Part shown: in pieces, positions 3,067 through 34,818 of the stretch
Position numbering within the stretch: the stretch's first letter is position 1
How the letters are laid out: the number at the start of each line of letters is the position of its first letter
NCBI GenBank assembly: GCA_007130045.1
Contig: SLTG01000105.1
Location: 1 to 34,818 of the forward strand
Direction: 5' to 3'
DNA: 34,818 bases
From: Opitutales bacterium
GTDB taxonomy: Bacteria > Verrucomicrobiota > Verrucomicrobiia > Opitutales > T3Sed10-336
Translations under genes and position numbers: made by a program
Notes under the pieces: model-generated
The model's database searches: none
What the model was told of the DNA's origin: nothing
Seen by the model: the letters and a program-made list of their open reading frames with translations, nothing else

Positions 3067-3181
3067 ATGGAGAAGAGAGTACGGAAGAGCGGACGGGAAT
3101 GGCAAGCCCTTCGACAGCCCGGCTTCAACAGGGGCTTGATGGGCTAAGGAAACACTGCCCATAACCGGTTCGGTTTCGTAA

Positions 3182-3346
3182 GTCGGGGAAAACGGTCATC
3201 GCAGCAGGGCTCGACGACGCATTCGGGCAGAGCAGTGGATTGGTGAGACAACGGGCGTGGCCATCCCTGAGCCGGGAACGGTGGCTTTGTGGGTGGGGTT
3301 CGCGGTGGTCGTGGTGGTGCTGGTGGGGAGGAGGCGGGTGGGGTGA
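3182..3346 (+). pseudogene. Orphan PEP-CTERM sorting-signal tail
   Basis: The last 29 codons (3257-3343) read VAIPEPGTVALWVG, then an all-hydrophobic stretch, then GRRRVG and TGA 3344-3346. This is the full three-part PEP-CTERM signal: the PEP motif, one membrane helix and a basic tail. It normally directs surface or exopolysaccharide proteins to an exosortase. The 25 codons before it look like unrelated sequence and are closed by TAA at 3179-3181. The secreted body of the protein is therefore missing and only the 3' end survives. A short exosortase substrate cannot be excluded, but no start codon or signal peptide is seen. Confidence 0.55.
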
Positions 3347-6406: not shown

Positions 6407-6802
6407 TTAAGCAGGTTTATCGAGGATTTTCACTGCTGGATTCTCAGAGAGAAAGCACTCAAAATATAGGTGTCTGGGTTTCTGTAGCCATCGAGTGCAT
6501 TTCGGCCTTCGTTCGACCCTTCGAGGCTCGTTTCGTCCGGAGCGTTCGGTGACGAGTCTTTGGGCAATATGAGCCCACATTTTGATGCGTTGCTGGACTC
6601 GTAGTTTTGGACGGGACACCAGATTGTGGAAGTGTTCACGGCAGGCGTGGATAACCTGTTGAGTTCCTCGAAAGCTCAGGCGGCGGTGATTGACCGCGTG
6701 AGCGGCTCCGGCCTTGAGCATCACCAGACGCATCAGATTGTAAACGATCTGGTGCATGAGCAGTTCTTTTTCGATCATCTGCGGCGATTTTGTCCGCAGC
6801 CC
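6407..6802 (-). mobile_element. IS4-family transposase, C-terminal fragment
   Basis: The minus-strand reading LRTKSPQMIEKELLMHQIVY (about 6799 downward) continues through NLMRLVMLKAG and a basic tail to a stop at 6407-6409. This is the typical C-terminal region of IS4-type DDE transposases, holding the YREK-like K/E helix that follows the last catalytic Glu. The DDE-containing N-terminal two thirds are absent. The homology stops at about 6802, where it meets an ISL3-type fragment on the opposite strand. It is therefore a dead remnant. Confidence 0.7.
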
Positions 6803-8217: not shown

Positions 8218-11040
8218 TCATCGGCGTGACTCTGTTGCGCCGCCGGGACTGATGACGATGAAGTTGACGCCGTTACTCTTGATGCGGGCGGTCAGTTCAA
8301 GCGGGGCGCCGGCCCGTTGGTGGAGCGTGGCGGTGGAGGTGGGCTCAAGCGTGGCCAGCTGCTGGAACCGCTCGGCCTGTTCGGGAGACACAGCACGGAC
8401 GTTGCGGGCGATCACAAGGTCCGCGTCAAGCAGTGAGGCGCTTTGCTGGCGGATCTCGGTGTCGGCCGCGGTGCGCACGAATTCGGCGAACATGTCGAAC
8501 AACTCGTGGCCGTATTCGGTGGCGATCGCTTCCAGCTCCCTGGCGGCCGAGTCGCGTACCTGTTCTCCCTCTTCGGCGAGCATTTTCAAAACGGCACGCA
8601 GACGCGGCAGGTATGCGTCGTCGGTCTGCGTCTCGCGCAGCTTCGAAGCGAGTTGGAAGTAAGAATTATGGCGGCGGTCGAAACGGTACTCGGTCGCGCG
8701 GAGCTCGCCGGAGACGTGGAGATTCCGCAGATCGACGGTAACGTCGAACTCGTCACGGGACCGCGACTGGGTGTCGTCCGCCTGGTGGGCGTAGAGGACG
8801 AGGCGGACGGTTCCGTCGTCGTCGGTCGAAGCGAATCCACTGACTACGTGGCCGTCCACGGTCTTATCCGGCAACACGTGGAAATCGTCGCGCAGGTCGG
8901 AGAGCAACGTGAGCACGTGAAAGACGGGCACGGCAATGGTGAGCCTGCTATCGGCACGTCCGTCGCCGGTTGCATCAACGCCCAGCCGGCGGGTGACCGC
9001 GTTGAGCCCCTGGAGATTGCTCAGCGGAGGCCAGACGGTCATGATCGTTTCGCCGTAGGCGTAGCGGGGATCGCCGGCGGCCCGGCGGAGTTGCCGAGCG
9101 ACCAGGTCTATGCTCCAGGTCTTGAAGTAGCCGTTGCCGAGATAGGCGTCGGCCACGGCGGGGTCGGGCGGCGGCGCCCAATCCGGACAGGCTTCGTGCG
9201 AATTGACCCACAGGTCGCGGTAGTAGGCTTCGTCGATCTCCAGCGCCATTTCTTTTGCACGAAAAAGCTTCGCCGCGGCCATCTTGGAGGCGTTGTAAAG
9301 GTGGATTGAAACGAAATCCACCGGACTGCCGCGACCTTCGTTGGCGGCGCACAGCTTCTCGACGCGGCGCGAACGCAGGCCCTCGAGTCGCTCGTCAGCG
9401 AAGGCGGCGTTGACGGTGTCGAACTCGTCGTCAACGGCCGCGGGCGAGCAGTGCACGAGGAACGGGTGAAGCAGTGACAGGTTCGTGCCGAAGATGCCGC
9501 CGATCTCCAGACCTCCGATGAAAACGTCGTTTGAGTCGTAGCCGCGGTCCTCGAATGCCCGCAGGATAGCGTCGGCCGTGTAGTCGTAGAAACGCAGCAA
9601 CTCGTGCGGGTCCTGGCGCCAGAAGGCGTTGAGGTCGGGCTCGTTGAACACGCTCCATACGAAATCCAGCGAGGCATCGCCGTAGCGGTCCACCAGATGG
9701 CCCGTGATGGTGCGTACGACCTCGTGCCATTGGACGTAGTCCTTCGGCGCATAGCCCCCGCGGCCGGTAATGGAGATGAACGACGGGGCATCGACAAAGT
9801 TGGGCATGACGCGGCGGCCGTAACGGCCGTGCACCATGTCCCACTCTTTGTTCAGCCTTTCCCAGAAGTAAACCGGCGTACCGACCGGGTCGAATCGGTA
9901 AAGGTAGCAGCCGCCCGGGGGAAACAGGCCGGGCGCGTCGGGATCCTCCTCTTCCGGCAGCGGACCGGTGTATTGCAGTTGCCAGCCGCCGGCGGGTCGG
10001 TCCACGGCGCTGACCAGTACCGTGCGAGCGTCGTCGTCGACGGCCAGCACCTCGGCCCGCGCATCGTGGTGTCCATCGGCCAGAAGAATCTTGTGCCCCG
10101 GCTCGTAATCTTCGCTCAGCGGGCGGTTCGATTCGATGCCGTACTGCCGGTGGCCAAACACGTCCTCGAGGTGAAGCAGCAAGCCGTCCTCGTGCTCGTC
10201 GATGGCAGTGATGCGGCGCGTCTCCATTTCGGCGACGATGTTAGGCTGCGTGTTGGCCGAGAGAACGTTGGGCCGATGCTGAGTGCCGGTCAACCAGAAG
10301 TCACGCTGGAAGCTCCAGGCGTGTGGATGCTGCCGGCGGGCTTCGTGCATCAGCTCGTACGTTGGGCCGAACGTCTCCTGCTGGGTGCAGAACACGACGT
10401 TGCAGATGCCCGAGAAGAACGCTCCGTGCCAGTGCACCGGGTCTTCGTCAAGGTCGATCGTGAAAGCCGGAGTGTGCACCCGCGGCCGCTCCGCCGTGGT
10501 AAAGTGCCAGCGATCCGGTCCCGCCGTCCGTGCCCGCTCAGGGCCGGCGATCACGCGGAAGGAAAGCGGCGAGGGTAGATAGAGCGGGTCGCCGTCGGTG
10601 AACTCGATCCCCTTCCGCGAGCTGGCGTTGACGTGAACGGTGTACCGGGTGTCGGGCGCCAGAGGCTGTCCGGGGTCGAGGTGGATCATCACGCCGGGCA
10701 CGCCGCGAATGTTCCGCTGACGCACCCAGCCGGTGACGCCGTCGGCCAGCTTGCCTTCTTCGCCGATCAGCGCGATCGGCTCGTGCCCCTGGGCTTCGAG
10801 GCGGACACGCAGCGAATCGGTGGCGATGGTGTCGTCGTTGTCGCCGGCGACGACCAACTTGAAGAAAAAGCTGGTATCGAGGGGCACGTTCCGCGCGTCG
10901 CGGGCCGGACGCGGCACGCCGTGCGGGTCCTCCGCCCGCTCGGTCATGCGAATCTCACCACCGGACAACACCGCGGTGCAAGCCAGAACGACCGTTGCGG
11001 CGGCCACCTTGACAAACGTGCTGCTGATCGTGGAACCCAT
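8218..11040 (-). CDS. Large secreted clan GH-A glycoside hydrolase (GH39-like)
   Basis: This is a 940-residue protein starting at ATG 11040, chosen because AGAGGG lies about 9 nt upstream and a signal peptide follows (hydrophobic VAAATVVLACTAVL). Residues about 35-185 look like an Ig-like/SbsA-type beta domain with LAPDTRYTVHV. The (beta/alpha)8 barrel follows. FVWSVFNEPDLNAFWR gives the acid/base Glu467 in the clan GH-A 'NEP' motif, VDFVSIHLY matches strand 6, and WVNSHEACPDW offers Glu616 as the likely nucleophile. A C-terminal helical region (about 780-940) is of unknown role. GH39 enzymes hydrolyse xylosides, iduronides or related glycans; the substrate here is unknown. The gene is alone on its strand. 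A dispersed repeat lies about 85 bp upstream of the start. Confidence 0.65.
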   Translation of the reverse strand: MGSTISSTFVKVAAATVVLACTAVLSGGEIRMTERAEDPHGVPRPARDARNVPLDTSFFFKLVVAGDNDDTIATDSLRVRLEAQGHEPIALIGEEGKLADGVTGWVRQRNIRGVPGVMIHLDPGQPLAPDTRYTVHVNASSRKGIEFTDGDPLYLPSPLSFRVIAGPERARTAGPDRWHFTTAERPRVHTPAFTIDLDEDPVHWHGAFFSGICNVVFCTQQETFGPTYELMHEARRQHPHAWSFQRDFWLTGTQHRPNVLSANTQPNIVAEMETRRITAIDEHEDGLLLHLEDVFGHRQYGIESNRPLSEDYEPGHKILLADGHHDARAEVLAVDDDARTVLVSAVDRPAGGWQLQYTGPLPEEEDPDAPGLFPPGGCYLYRFDPVGTPVYFWERLNKEWDMVHGRYGRRVMPNFVDAPSFISITGRGGYAPKDYVQWHEVVRTITGHLVDRYGDASLDFVWSVFNEPDLNAFWRQDPHELLRFYDYTADAILRAFEDRGYDSNDVFIGGLEIGGIFGTNLSLLHPFLVHCSPAAVDDEFDTVNAAFADERLEGLRSRRVEKLCAANEGRGSPVDFVSIHLYNASKMAAAKLFRAKEMALEIDEAYYRDLWVNSHEACPDWAPPPDPAVADAYLGNGYFKTWSIDLVARQLRRAAGDPRYAYGETIMTVWPPLSNLQGLNAVTRRLGVDATGDGRADSRLTIAVPVFHVLTLLSDLRDDFHVLPDKTVDGHVVSGFASTDDDGTVRLVLYAHQADDTQSRSRDEFDVTVDLRNLHVSGELRATEYRFDRRHNSYFQLASKLRETQTDDAYLPRLRAVLKMLAEEGEQVRDSAARELEAIATEYGHELFDMFAEFVRTAADTEIRQQSASLLDADLVIARNVRAVSPEQAERFQQLATLEPTSTATLHQRAGAPLELTARIKSNGVNFIVISPGGATESRR

Positions 11041-29796: not shown

Positions 29797-30319
29797 ACAT
29801 GAAATATTGCAATAACAATGACAATTTTCAAGTTAAAAAGGAGGGCGACGTGATTGAAATGCTCCTGTGATCTGTGCCTGAGAAGGCGAAAAGCGGAAAG
29901 GAACAAATTCTTTAACCACGAAGAGCACGAAGAGGAAAGGGGGCGGACTGTAGCATCGGCGCTTCCGCCGATCGGTTTTGCTCCCGAACGCGGCAAGAGA
30001 AAGTAGCGCCCTGCTTAAGCGGGCGAATCGCGGTGACAATGCGGGAGGATGTTCCCATCAGCCCTAGAAGTGATACGGGATCAGCCAAACGTCGAAGTTC
30101 GAATGTCGATAGTCGAAGGCGTGAAATCCGACCGCTTCCGCAATTTCGGCATTTGAAATTCCTCATTCGAAATTCTTTTGGGACGGGTTGAGGATCGGTC
30201 TGCGGGGAGGAACTCACGGGATGGAAATTTGCCGGTAAAGGGTTGGGATGGAAAGAAAGAAGTAACCGGAGTATCTGGATCGTGTGGCCTTGATGGTCCA
30301 TGGTTTCACGCACAGCCTT
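29797..30319. other. Repeat-rich intergenic region
   Basis: No gene supported. It contains a purine-rich 'accacgaagagcacgaag' tract near 29916, a 21-nt motif at 29946-29966 whose exact inverse occurs at 33944-33964, and the leader copy at 30184-30258. Such motifs recur between genes in Verrucomicrobia-type genomes. They look like the scars of repeated insertion and recombination. Confidence 0.5.
30184..30258 (-). repeat. Leader cassette copy A (75 bp)
   Basis: It matches 33437-33511 at 71 of 75 positions. Read on the minus strand it holds a C/T-rich leader, then GTG and the codons for MSSSPQTDPQP, the start of the MmeI-like gene. After that the two copies diverge, so copy A is a decapitated duplicate. 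It lies just beyond the 3' end of the restriction gene. Confidence 0.75.
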
Positions 30320-31054
30320 TCATCCGGTGGTCTCAATCTCAACATGGGCGAGAAACCGGGCTATCAGTTGATTCAGGGAGGTAGTGGTGGACAGGTCGGT
30401 GAATCGACCGGATTTGGCGGCACTGGGCGGTGAAGCAACAACAGCGGCGGCGGTGTAAATGCGTTCTTGGACCATGCGTTCGCAGAGGATACGCATACGC
30501 TCTTGATAGGATGCGGTGCGGAAGACAGGATCGGACGCAAAATGAATGGAGGGGTTGCCGCGTTTGGGCACGCAGCGGGATTTATCTTCGTCTTCGACGA
30601 GGATGCAATAGGCAATAAATGGGTTGGCACCGGCTCCGAAGCGGCCTTCGCGTTGGGCGACCGAGAGATCGATCCCGGAGCCGAGGGCTTCTTCGCAGCG
30701 GTTGTTGGCGTTGTTACCGAACGATGGGCCGCCGAGCGCTTTGAATTCGAGTGTCGCGATGAGTCGGCCCTTATCGATCAGCACCAGATCCCATTGCTTC
30801 GTCGGGCGAAAATGGCCGGGGAGAACACCCTTGGCCTTATTCTGATAGATCACGAGGGCATTCCCGCCGTGTTTCTTCGCGAGTGCGGCGAACATATCTG
30901 CGAAGCCGGTGAAGTTTTTTCCGGCGGTGGCCGCACCTCGTCGCCCTTGGTCGACTCTTTGACCCGCTTGATTCTTTTTGAGGGCGGTATTCTTACTTTT
31001 CCAGTAAGACCGGACCGCTTTTCGAATCGAGTCGGAGTAATCGGCTTTTGGCAT
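30320..31054 (-). CDS. PaeR7I-family type II restriction endonuclease
   Basis: 244 residues, as expected (PaeR7I is about 246). WDLVLIDKGRLIATLEFKAL contains the PD-(D/E)xK core (Asp89, Glu103, Lys105), and GPSFGNNANNRCEEALGSGI is the family signature. PaeR7I and its relatives cut CTCGAG (XhoI specificity); that specificity here is inferred. Such sites occur in the window, for example at 16088, 20087 and 20960, so protection by the neighbouring methylase is needed. The start ATG 31054 is 15 bp after the methylase stop on the same strand, giving methylase-first order. Confidence 0.85.
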   Translation of the reverse strand: MPKADYSDSIRKAVRSYWKSKNTALKKNQAGQRVDQGRRGAATAGKNFTGFADMFAALAKKHGGNALVIYQNKAKGVLPGHFRPTKQWDLVLIDKGRLIATLEFKALGGPSFGNNANNRCEEALGSGIDLSVAQREGRFGAGANPFIAYCILVEDEDKSRCVPKRGNPSIHFASDPVFRTASYQERMRILCERMVQERIYTAAAVVASPPSAAKSGRFTDLSTTTSLNQLIARFLAHVEIETTG

Positions 31055-31069
31055 GTTCGTCGGCGGTTA

Positions 31070-32755
31070 TCAGTCTGCACACAATGCATTCCAATCCGTT
31101 TCGTCGAGACCGTAGAGTGAGCGAACGGTATCCTCGATTCGTGGGATGTCATCGGATTCGGCGAGGGATTTGAGGGTGGTTTGGAGCTCACTGGAGAGCG
31201 TCGACCAGCGCGGGAGGCGGATACGGCGGAGGTATTGGGCCTGGAAGCGGAGGCAGTCGCCGCGCATGCGCAAGGAGTAGGTGGCCACGAAGGCGTTGGC
31301 CAAGCGGCTGCGGAGGACGGTTTGCAGGGCGCGCAGGTCCCATTCGCTTGCAGTGATATAATAGAGATTGTGGTGGGGGTAGAACTCGCCGTTGTCGTAG
31401 GCGACCTGGGGCTCACCCTGAATGTCGGGAATCACCAGTTTCGGTGTGCCGGAGAGTGCGGGATAGATGCGATCAATGGTCTTGAACCAAGTGTGTGGAT
31501 TCTTTTTGGCGACGTGGCGGTCTTGGATTTGGTCACGGTGGGTGTCGAGGTAGGCCTTGAATCTCGGGAAGTCGTGGGGGTCGACCAGGCCGGGGCGGTC
31601 GCCGTCGAAGGGGTTGAGCACGTATTTTCCGGTCCATTCAACGCGGTTGTTTTTGAGATCCCGTCGAGTGAGCAGGCGCAATTTGCGCTCAGGCTCGACG
31701 TCGAGTTCGGCATCGGTGCCGATATAGACCTTGTCGGCCCCGGTGGCGACGCCGATGCCGACTTTACAGCCCGCCTCTTCCAAAGTGGGGAGGGTGCGTT
31801 CCAAGTGTTGAATGACCGTAAGCCGCGAAGCATTGGAGAGCAGCCAGGGAGCGCGGCTGTCGGCGATGCCGTTCATTTCCTTGATCCGGGGATCCGGCCG
31901 ATGGTTGAGCAAGCATTCCGCCAGTTCTGGCAGAGCCTCGCTATAAATATCCTCTTTTTCGATCACGCGGGTCGAGTTCCCGGAGCCATTGCGAATCACG
32001 GTGACGGCGGGGTAGGCGATGACTTCGCCGTGAAAGGCATCCACTCCCGTAAAATCGACGTACGTCTCCATGTGGAAGGCTTCGGCGATCATTTCGCGGA
32101 GCGGACCACCGTAGCGGTTTTTGATCCAGCGGTTGGCGCAGATGTAGCCGAGTTTGCCCTCGGGTTCGAGCAGGGAAAGTCCTTTTTCAAAGAAGGCGAT
32201 GTAGAGGTCCGCGCGATCATACATGGTGCGGAACTGGGCGCGGTAGCGCTGCATCAAGGGCCTTGGCAGCGATTCGATGCGCAGGTAGGGAGGGTTGCCG
32301 ACAACATGGGTGAAGCGCGTCGTGAACGGACGGCTGAGAAAATCCGCGTGGTGCAGCCAGGCATCGGTCAGGGTTTGGATTTCCGGTGTCGAGAAACCGG
32401 ATTGTTCCAGTTCGACGCTAACGCGTTGTTTCAGGCTATCGTAGGCAACCCGATTGACCTCGACGGCACAGAGACAGGGTTCCAATTGTTCAGTGGTGGC
32501 ATGCGGTGCATCCTCGAGCAGACGCCGAAGGGCGGGCATCAGGAAATCGCCGGAACCGCAGGAGGGTTCCAACAGCCGTTTCGACAAAAGGTTTTTGCCC
32601 ACCCGCCAACCGACCAGATCGAGGATAAAACCGGCGACTTCGGGTTTGGTGAAGACCTCTCCTCGGGTTTCCGCCGCTGATTCCGCCCAGTAATGAACCG
32701 CGTCAAGCGACTCTACGCCGGGCAGCGGGATGTCGAGTTGTGTCGCGATAGGCAT
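31070..32755 (-). CDS. N6-adenine DNA methyltransferase, M.PaeR7I/Eco57I-like
   Basis: 561 residues from ATG 32755. Motif I is LLEPSCGSGDF (61-71), motif IV is GNPPYLRIESLP (NPPY at 154-157), and a target-recognition half follows with EWTGKYVLNPFDGDRP and TWFKTIDRIYPAL. This is the gamma-type N6-adenine methylase of PaeR7I-like systems, which would protect CTCGAG sites. The endonuclease gene follows after 15 bp. The 5' end overlaps the frame of the MmeI-like remnant, as if the pair had been inserted into that gene. Both R and M look intact, so the system may be active. Confidence 0.88.
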   Translation of the reverse strand: MPIATQLDIPLPGVESLDAVHYWAESAAETRGEVFTKPEVAGFILDLVGWRVGKNLLSKRLLEPSCGSGDFLMPALRRLLEDAPHATTEQLEPCLCAVEVNRVAYDSLKQRVSVELEQSGFSTPEIQTLTDAWLHHADFLSRPFTTRFTHVVGNPPYLRIESLPRPLMQRYRAQFRTMYDRADLYIAFFEKGLSLLEPEGKLGYICANRWIKNRYGGPLREMIAEAFHMETYVDFTGVDAFHGEVIAYPAVTVIRNGSGNSTRVIEKEDIYSEALPELAECLLNHRPDPRIKEMNGIADSRAPWLLSNASRLTVIQHLERTLPTLEEAGCKVGIGVATGADKVYIGTDAELDVEPERKLRLLTRRDLKNNRVEWTGKYVLNPFDGDRPGLVDPHDFPRFKAYLDTHRDQIQDRHVAKKNPHTWFKTIDRIYPALSGTPKLVIPDIQGEPQVAYDNGEFYPHHNLYYITASEWDLRALQTVLRSRLANAFVATYSLRMRGDCLRFQAQYLRRIRLPRWSTLSSELQTTLKSLAESDDIPRIEDTVRSLYGLDETDWNALCAD

Positions 32756-33470
32756 GGTGGAACGGTGAACAAGAATTCAGTCGTAAATTGAGCGCGTCTT
32801 CGGAGATGAAGCAAGGGGAAAATAGGGATGAAGGATGAAGTTGAATCGGCGTAGGTAGTGAGAGGCTTGCCGACTTGTTGTTCGGGATAGATTTCGGTGC
32901 TTTCGCGGGGGGAACGACGGAGTGGGGTTTGGTGGTGCGGCCGTCCCAGTGGGTTTTGGGGCGGCCGGATTCGTCGCGGACGATTTGTTTGGCGTCGTAG
33001 GTGAGGATGGCGTCGCGGGTTTCGATGTTTTGCGCGTCTTCCAGGATGGGTTCGCTGACGGTTTTGACGTCGCCGGCCGTTCGTAGATGCCATTGGAGGT
33101 AGCCGATCCAGAGGACGAGTTCGGCGATGACGGCCGCCCGGGGGTTGATCTCGATGCCGCGCATTTGGTTGGGGCGGACGGTGGCGGTGTCCATTTCGAG
33201 GCTGCGGTTGCCGCCGAAGCGTTCGAGGGTGTCGAGCACTTCGCCTTCGAGGCGCTTGAGGTGTTCGAGGGTGACGTAGAGGAAGTTGCCGGTGCCGCCG
33301 GCGGGGTCGGGTGCGGGGGCGCCGAGCAGGTCACAGAGTTCGCCGATGAAGAGCTGGTAGTTGGCGCGTTCGCCGCCGTCTTTGTCCGCCCACTTTGCGA
33401 TGAAGGCGGCGGCCTCTTCTTCCCCGGTTGTCGGGGCGGGTTGAGGATCGGTCTGAGGGGAGGAACTCAC
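32703..33470 (-). pseudogene. MmeI-like restriction-methylation enzyme, internally deleted and 3'-truncated
   Basis: A GTG at 33470 opens MSSSPQTDPQ, then AAAFIAKWADKDGGERANYQ, LCDLLGAP: the N-terminal start of MmeI-like (type IIL) enzymes. At codon 57 (about 33300) it jumps from PAPDPA directly into GGTGNFLYVTLEHLKRLEGE, the methylase motif I region (normally DPACGSGNF). The nuclease domain and linker in between, several hundred residues in the family, are missing, apparently joined at a repeated 'DPA' sequence. The motif I Cys is Gly. Homology continues with VRPNQMRGIEINPRAAVIAE to about 32921 and then degenerates. The NPP(F/Y) motif and specificity domain are lost, so it is inactive. It overlaps the start of the PaeR7I-like methylase gene. 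Confidence 0.75.
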
Positions 33471-33616
33471 AGGAGAGAAATTTGCCGGTAAAGGGTTGGG
33501 ATGGAAAGAAAAAAGGCGTGCGGGTCAGGGTCTCTCACGGAATTTTTGACCATAGATTTCTCAGGTTGCACGGATACAAGGGCGGAGAACTGATCTTTTA
33601 CCACGAAGGGCGCGCC
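33437..33616 (-). repeat. Leader cassette copy B
   Basis: Positions 33437-33511 match copy A, and 33465-33616 match copy C (34592-34743) over 152 bp of equal length with scattered mismatches. It covers the GTG start and 5' leader of the MmeI-like gene. All three copies have the same orientation. Confidence 0.75.
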
Positions 33617-33627
33617 TTCGTGGTAAA
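33597..33627. repeat. Perfect 13-bp inverted repeat around GCGCG
   Basis: TTTACCACGAAGG (33597-33609), 5-nt centre, CCTTCGTGGTAAA (33615-33627). It is formed where two oppositely oriented 'accacgaagg' motifs meet. Its left arm is the edge of leader copy B. Confidence 0.7.
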
Positions 33628-33991
33628 GCCTGGTTCCGATTCTGGGGATCGGACGGTTTGTCGGCCGGTTGGTGACAACGTCTGAAAAGCGGCGCTACGG
33701 TTGAGCGACCGCAGGGGCGGGTGTGGATGCCCGCATTTCCCATCCCACGACCCTCGCCCCCCGTCCCAATCTGTGCCCATCTGTGAAATCTGTGGTTGGA
33801 ATTCTTAGTTCTTGGTTCGGGGTTCCTGGTTCCGCTGCCTTACCCTTCGTGTCTTTCACCGGCCTGAGCTCGTCGAAGGCGTGTCCTTCGTGGTGAGCAT
33901 TCCGGTTCGGGGAATTCGGACTTCGGCGAGCTTGGTCGGGCACGGAAGCGCCGATGCTACAGTCGCGCACGGAAGCCTCCAAACGGTAATG
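33628..33991. other. Repeat-rich intergenic region
   Basis: No gene supported. It holds 'cacagatt/catctgtgaaatctgtgg'-type simple motifs (33768-33797), an inverted counterpart of 34745-34780 around 33846-33880 (CACCGGCCTGAGCT core), and the inverse 21-nt motif at 33944-33964 that pairs with 29946-29966. It is likely recombination scar material. Confidence 0.45.
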
Positions 33992-34228
33992 TCAGCCAAC
34001 CTGACGAACGCACAACACTTCATCCGATCGCAAGGGTTCCAAAGCGGCGACCGGAACGGTGGCAGTTGCGATCGTATGGCCCATGGCGTTGAAGACTTCT
34101 ATGGAAAAGCCTTCCGTACCGTCGGGGGCGGTGTGCCGGTCAACGAGACGGACCACATCGCCACGTTTGAGGTGGTTCTTGGGAAAATCGTCTGTCAGGA
34201 CGGCGTCTTTGTAGAGTTCAAGGCTCAT
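33992..34228 (-). CDS. DUF4926 small protein (putative immunity/antitoxin-like partner)
   Basis: 78 residues from ATG 34228. LTDDFPKNHLKRGDVVRLVD followed by a GFSIEVFNAMGHTIATATV segment matches DUF4926, a small SH3-like barrel in which 'LKRGDVGTVV...YEVEF' is typical. Its function is unknown. The start lies 11 bp inside the end of the upstream DUF6883 gene, so the two are translationally coupled. I infer a pair in which this small protein may neutralise or regulate its partner. Confidence 0.65.
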   Translation of the reverse strand: MSLELYKDAVLTDDFPKNHLKRGDVVRLVDRHTAPDGTEGFSIEVFNAMGHTIATATVPVAALEPLRSDEVLCVRQVG

Positions 34229-34559
34229 GATCCGTTTTGGTTATAGGAATCAAGGTAATGAATTTTGTGATTCCTGACAAGTGTTCGGTCATCCAGATTG
34301 TCCGAACGGACAATCGTCTTCCATTCGGGCCTCTGAGTTCGCCCACGATTTCAAAATTTTGGCCGAACTCGTTGGATTCAAGCGGTATGGCATCCAGAGG
34401 CAGAAGTTGCTCGATTAGGTCTTGGCGAAGTTGATCCGCAATTTCGAGTGTGTAGCCAGCCAGTCGGAGAAAGCGGGATTTGTCGCCACGTTCCTGTTGT
34501 ACCAGCAGGTAACGGGTGATCTTCTCGTCCGCGATAATCGTCGTTGACGGTAACTTCAT
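34218..34559 (-). CDS. DUF6883-like protein (putative toxin-like partner)
   Basis: 113 residues. The start ATG 34559 (MKLPSTTIIADEKITRYLLV) was chosen over TTG 34565 because the family begins 'MKLPNA...I...KLTxYLL', and GGGAGG lies upstream. Further features are DKSRFLRLAGYTLEIADQLR and GRRLSVRTIWMTEH, like the strand pair 'VRTAWI' near the end of DUF6883 domains. DUF6883 proteins occur alone beside DUF4926 or at the end of polymorphic toxins; no activity is established. Leader cassette copy C lies directly upstream. It is close to the window end but complete. Confidence 0.6.
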   Translation of the reverse strand: MKLPSTTIIADEKITRYLLVQQERGDKSRFLRLAGYTLEIADQLRQDLIEQLLPLDAIPLESNEFGQNFEIVGELRGPNGRRLSVRTIWMTEHLSGITKFITLIPITKTDHEP

Positions 34560-34591
34560 GCACAAAACATCCTGCCTCCCGGCTAGGAGCC

Positions 34592-34743
34592 ACTCACAGG
34601 AAGTGAATTTGCCGGTAAAGGGTTGGGATGGAAAGAAAAAAGGGGTGTGGGGTCAGGGTCTCACACGGAATTTTGACCATAGATTGCCCAGATTGCACGG
34701 ATTCAAAGACTGGGAACCGATCTCTAACCACGAAGGGCGCGCC
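34592..34743 (-). repeat. Leader cassette copy C
   Basis: 152 bp matching 33465-33616, including the TTTCTTTCCATCCCAACCC block and the CCACGAAGGGCGCGCC edge. Read on the minus strand it contains GTG AGT then a stop after two more codons, so the original gene start is dead and the DUF6883 gene now follows it. After it, 34744-34818 holds only GC-rich intergenic sequence. Confidence 0.75.
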
Positions 34744-34818
34744 CTCGACAAGCTCAGGCCGGTGAAAGAGCACGAAGAAGGATCTTATGGCGGGCGGGAC
34801 GCCCGCGGCGTTCCCCGA

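What the first reader, a model, noticed from the sequence alone, without database searches (positions are those of the whole stretch)
30184..33511. Intact PaeR7I-type system bracketed by 75-bp direct repeats and lodged in an MmeI-like gene
Leader copies A and B (71/75 identical) flank the R-M pair in the same orientation. The pair overlaps the truncated 3' end of the MmeI remnant. One restriction system appears to have replaced another, perhaps by recombination between the repeats, which could also excise the module.
Basis: partly seen in the sequence, partly recalled or inferred. Interest (0 to 1): 0.6.

Follow-up and report, generated by a model that had tools for sequence, protein, structure and literature searches.

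The report
Restriction pair inside decayed restriction gene
A complete XhoI/PaeR7I-like restriction-modification gene pair sits inside the wreck of an older MmeI-like restriction gene; the repeats on either side are copies of the start of that older gene rather than the ends of an excisable element, so this is a fairly ordinary scar of gene turnover.

Summary
They flank an intact M-R pair: R belongs to Pfam XhoI, M is a type II adenine methylase. The MmeI-like gene is worse than truncated: its first 57 codons are fused to methylase motif I (about 385 codons lost) and its homology stops at 32916.

The repeat is the 5' leader plus first codons of the MmeI-like gene. The same leader precedes that gene in another genus without an XhoI pair. 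A fourth copy lies on another contig without R-M, and a third precedes a DUF6883 gene. The MmeI-like gene is also broken in relatives without the pair.

Copy A may be left from a long target duplication made when the pair inserted: unrelated 110-200-bp repeats flank sister pairs in the phylum, one a 131-bp, 99% copy of a trpB 3' end. But A is no closer to B than other leader copies are, and control loci also show flanking repeats. Excision is unsupported. New member of a known kind.

The parts
30320..31054 (-). R gene, XhoI/PaeR7I-family restriction endonuclease, 244 aa, intact
   Evidence: PF04555 190.9 bits; PADLOC REase_II 229.8 bits; D89, E103, K105 kept at positions conserved in 27 aligned sequences
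31070..32755 (-). M gene, type II adenine methylase, 561 aa, intact, 15 nt upstream of R
   Evidence: PF07669 and PF12950; PADLOC MTase_II 668.6 bits over 24-557; BseCI and TaqI methylases in PDB
32916..33470 (-). MmeI-like gene remnant: codons 1-57 fused near 33300 to methylase motif I, cut off at 32916
   Evidence: PF20473, 5hr4, alignments to L070, L071 and L069
33433..33515 (-). Repeat B: 45 nt of 5' leader plus first ~13 codons of the MmeI-like gene, in its native place
   Evidence: same leader before the MmeI-like gene in G006
30180..30262 (-). Repeat A: same leader and first ~13 codons, then unrelated sequence
34586..34747 (-). Repeat C: leader without MmeI codons plus upstream sequence shared with B, in front of the DUF6883 gene
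32756..32915 (.). Spacer between the end of MmeI homology and M; homology to the relative in L100 reaches only to 32788
30263..30319 (.). Spacer between the R stop and repeat A; no match found in the relatives compared

Best explanation
An ordinary, probably active type II restriction-modification pair of the XhoI/PaeR7I kind (M then R, probably one operon) was gained horizontally; by family inference it methylates and cuts CTCGAG. It now lies inside the remains of an MmeI-like restriction gene. The flanking repeats are copies of that gene's 5' leader and first codons; they belong to the older gene, not to the pair, and are not the ends of an excisable module. For copy A the single most likely origin is a target duplication made when the pair inserted into the MmeI-like gene (new R-side junction at the leader's 5' edge, M-side junction near 32916), the distal copy being later eroded to 83 bp; I give this step about 45%. 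Shown: gene identities, leader identity, further leader copies, absence of the repeats beside the closest relatives, decay of the MmeI-like gene. Inferred: activity, specificity, horizontal gain as a unit, and how A arose.
For: R and M families and intact frames. Leader plus MmeI-like gene in G006 at 91-93%, with M not found there. Leader copies in this genome without R-M. Pair in no other of the 8 genomes of the family, but in other families of the order. G126 homology limited to the genes (33 nt upstream of M to near the R stop) and G165 intact pair without flanking repeats or MmeI. Target duplication for A: sister pairs with unrelated direct repeats, L130 131 bp at 99% (trpB 3' end), L093 117 bp, L077 202 bp; all five repeat pairs of 2-4 kb spacing enclose the R-M genes; reviews describe R-M insertion with target duplications of the order of 100 bp (PMC3874152; PMC3031569).
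Against: For the A step: A differs from B at 6 of 83 positions, as much as the G006 copy (6) or C2 (5) does; A is not followed by MmeI sequence, so a later deletion must be assumed; control loci in related genomes also have repeats bracketing an ordinary gene; no empty site is available. Activity and CTCGAG specificity are not tested; CTCGAG is scarce (14 versus 25.6 expected) but so is GTCGAC.
Confidence: 0.7

Rival explanations
1. Copy A is an independent relic of another MmeI-like gene copy. The leader-MmeI unit arrived or was duplicated several times in this genome and decayed; the pair's position between two relics is a coincidence in a turnover hot spot.
For: At least four leader copies with different truncation points, one on another contig without R-M; A no closer to B than C2 or G006 is; leader and MmeI-like gene 91-93% alike in G006 whereas a neighbouring vertical gene is about 80%; flanking repeats also occur around an ordinary gene.
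Against: A and B share two bases (TTTC against TTCA in the other copies); A lies only 57 nt from the R stop, in the same orientation as B.
Confidence: 0.38
2. Excisable module: A and B are recombination sites through which the R-M pair is lost or gained, for example by integration of a circle that carried one leader.
For: 83-bp, 93% direct repeats in the same orientation, in principle long enough for homologous recombination.
Against: Closest pairs lack the leader; the leader occurs without R-M; no exact leader match in viral contigs; no recombinase gene recognised between the repeats.
Confidence: 0.07
3. The pair replaced the MmeI-like system: its insertion destroyed a working MmeI-like gene.
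For: MmeI homology ends at 32916, just before the pair's region, and the rest of the gene is not in the genome.
Against: The remnant also carries an internal deletion of about 385 codons that the insertion does not explain; the gene has in-frame stops in G001 and G006, where the pair was not found.
Confidence: 0.2

Closest known systems
PaeR7I / XhoI type II restriction-modification systems
   Same: M-R order, XhoI-family R, adenine methylase M; plasmid homologues annotated PaeR7I family at 43-46% identity
   Different: No difference seen in the genes; specificity not tested; chromosomal contig, inside a decayed restriction gene
R-M insertion with long target duplication (Nobusato et al. 2000; Furuta et al. 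2010, read only through PMC3874152 and PMC3031569)
   Same: R-M pair without transposase between direct repeats of the order of 100 bp
   Different: Repeat A is not continuous with the rest of the target, the M-side gap holds a gene remnant, no empty site; several leader copies exist elsewhere
MmeI-like type IIG/IIL single-chain restriction-modification enzymes
   Same: Remnant aligns to the MmeI methylase domain and to MmeI-like genes in G001 and G006
   Different: Dead here: most of the N-terminal part, the NPPY motif and the recognition domain are missing

Membership tests
PaeR7I/XhoI type II R-M | Endonuclease of the XhoI family with its catalytic residues | tested here: met
   PF04555 2.7e-56; D89, E103, K105 conserved
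PaeR7I/XhoI type II R-M | Cognate adenine methylase gene beside R | tested here: met
   M ends 15 nt before R; PADLOC MTase_II 668.6 bits
PaeR7I/XhoI type II R-M | Recognition and methylation of CTCGAG | not testable with these tools
   Inferred from the family; CTCGAG counts not specific
R-M insertion with long target duplication | Direct repeats flanking the R-M unit | tested here: met
   A and B, 77/83
R-M insertion with long target duplication | Repeats abut the insert and each continues into the original target | tested here: inconclusive
   R side abuts within 57 nt; beyond A there is no MmeI sequence
R-M insertion with long target duplication | Empty site with a single copy in a relative | tested here: inconclusive
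   Locus not found in the family's other genomes
Excisable R-M module | Repeats travel with the R-M pair | tested here: not met
   G165 and G126 pairs lack them; the leader occurs without R-M in G006 and on G000:C2
MmeI-like type IIG/IIL enzyme | Full-length nuclease, methylase and recognition parts | tested here: not met
   Internal deletion and truncation; MmeI_Mtase profile positions 25-127 of 259 only

The most novel reading that the evidence does not exclude
XhoI/PaeR7I-type R-M pairs in this phylum behave as self-standing mobile units of about 2.5 kb that repeatedly insert at gene ends with 100-200-bp (sometimes longer) target duplications and without a transposase; the window is an old, eroded case that hit another restriction gene.
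Probability: 0.3. Interest if true: 0.45.

Novelty: new member of a known kind. Interest (0 to 1): 0.25.

Why it matters
It corrects a tempting 'excisable restriction module' reading: repeats around a defence pair can simply be relics of the older gene it landed in. As a by-product it points to a clean case (L130, a pair between two 99%-identical 131-bp copies of a trpB 3' end) for studying how restriction-modification genes insert without a transposase, a mechanism proposed from genome comparison in 2000.

Tried and rejected
Leader as a phage or mobile-element end: no exact match in viral contigs; no M relatives there either. Leader as a widespread repeat: in 372 genomes of the order only G000 and G006 have full-length matches, the rest being 19-29-nt matches near chance. 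Missing parts of the MmeI-like gene elsewhere in the genome: not found. Empty site in relatives: locus not found. trpB-ilvD empty site for L130: ilvD does not follow trpB in the eight relatives examined. 'Flanking repeats prove insertion': weakened by control loci L172 and L173. CTCGAG avoidance: not specific. Furuta 2010 is not held, so it is cited only through other papers.

Full report
What was checked. The window is the whole of contig C36 of a 3.4-Mb, 146-contig genome. The nearest named relative of the pair is an Opitutales MAG. Repeats A 30180-30262 and B 33433-33515 are 93% identical over 83 bp in the same orientation, well beyond chance.

The pair. Read on the minus strand, M (32755-31070) is followed 15 nt later by R (31054-30320). 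R matches Pfam XhoI with 190.9 bits and keeps the D...E-x-K residues conserved among 27 aligned sequences. M matches a PADLOC type II methylase model over nearly its whole length and has BseCI and TaqI methylases as relatives in the PDB. Plasmid homologues of R at 43-46% identity are in part annotated 'PaeR7I family'. I infer an active CTCGAG system; site counts do not test this usefully, since GTCGAC is equally scarce.

The MmeI-like relic. The frame 33470-32703 aligns over its first 57 codons to the N-terminus of MmeI-like genes in G006 and G001. It then jumps to methylase motif I, losing about 385 codons at a short shared 'DPA' stretch, and follows the G001 gene until 32916. What follows down to 32703 is a run-on frame. 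The missing parts are not found elsewhere in the genome. In G001 and G006, where M was not found, the gene carries an in-frame stop (TAA, TAG). Decay of this gene is therefore not tied to the arrival of the pair; these are draft contigs, so single stops could be assembly errors.

What the repeat is. Repeat B consists of 45 nt of leader plus the first ~13 codons of the MmeI-like gene. The same 83 bp (93%) stands in front of the MmeI-like gene in G006, a different genus of the family, although a vertically inherited stretch near the window's locus is only about 80% identical between the two. A fourth copy with about 25 codons lies on contig C2 with no R-M annotated or detected there. A copy without MmeI codons (34586-34747) stands in front of a DUF6883 gene. 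Among 372 genomes of the order only G000 and G006 have full-length matches. The leader is thus the 5' end of the MmeI-like gene, not an end of the R-M module.

Relatives of the pair. The pair occurs in no other of the eight genomes of the family. The closest is in G126/L100 (84% nt; split M and internally deleted R); its homology runs only from 33 nt upstream of M to near the R stop, without leader or relic. G165 has an intact pair (71% and 76% aa) with no repeats shared between its 4-kb flanks and no MmeI-like gene.

How copy A may have arisen. Four other XhoI-type loci in the phylum have unrelated direct repeats enclosing the pair or the R gene and its neighbour: L077 (202 bp, 80%, gene 3' end), L079 (145 bp, 88%), L093 (117 bp, 87%, gene 3' end) and L130 (131 bp, 99%, trpB 3' end and the sequence after it). 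With the window, all five repeat pairs of at least 79% identity and 2-4 kb spacing enclose the R-M genes; random placement would do so with probability 0.006-0.05 each. Published reviews describe R-M insertion with target duplications of the order of 100 bp (PMC3874152; PMC3031569). In the window this works if the duplicated stretch ran from the leader's 5' edge (33515) to about 32916, leaving 57 nt on the R side and 160 nt on the M side, the distal copy being later cut back to 83 bp. That is inference.

Limits. A is as far from B as the C2 or G006 copies are, A lacks any following MmeI sequence, and repeat-rich control loci in related genomes show the same kind of bracketing around an ordinary gene (L172, L173). 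The spacing criterion was chosen after seeing the data. I therefore hold target duplication (about 45%) only slightly above independent relic (about 38%). No empty site is available.

Verdict. Ordinary biology: a horizontally gained PaeR7I/XhoI-type R-M pair inside a decayed MmeI-like gene, a new member of a known kind. The excisable-module idea is not supported.

Noticed in passing
L130 (G494:C12) 6421-6551 and 9043-9173: A XhoI-type pair lies between two 99%-identical 131-bp copies of the 3' end of trpB and the sequence after it, a clean candidate for insertion with long target duplication.
   Followed up: partly
L069 (G001:C219) near 575; L070 (G006:C51) near 2924: The MmeI-like gene has an in-frame stop in both relatives (TAA, TAG), so it seems to be decaying across the family.
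   Followed up: partly
34218-34565 (-) and about 33990-34230 (-): A DUF6883 gene and a small downstream frame stand behind leader copy C; a remnant of the DUF6883 start also lies near the MmeI leader copy on G000:C2 (L014 8837-8871).
   Followed up: no
33544-33620 and 34671-34747: A dispersed repeat (GACCATAGATT...GATTGCACGGAT) is shared by leader copies B, C and C2, with partial matches on several other contigs.
   Followed up: no
L124/L100 (G126:C125): The related pair in an Opitutales MAG is in pieces: M split between two copies of a sulfatase-gene end, R internally deleted.
   Followed up: partly
L173 (G001:C201) 926-1051 and 3083-3208: 126-bp, 99% direct repeats bracket an ordinary EB_dh gene, showing that tight flanking repeats are not special to R-M in this family.
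   Followed up: no
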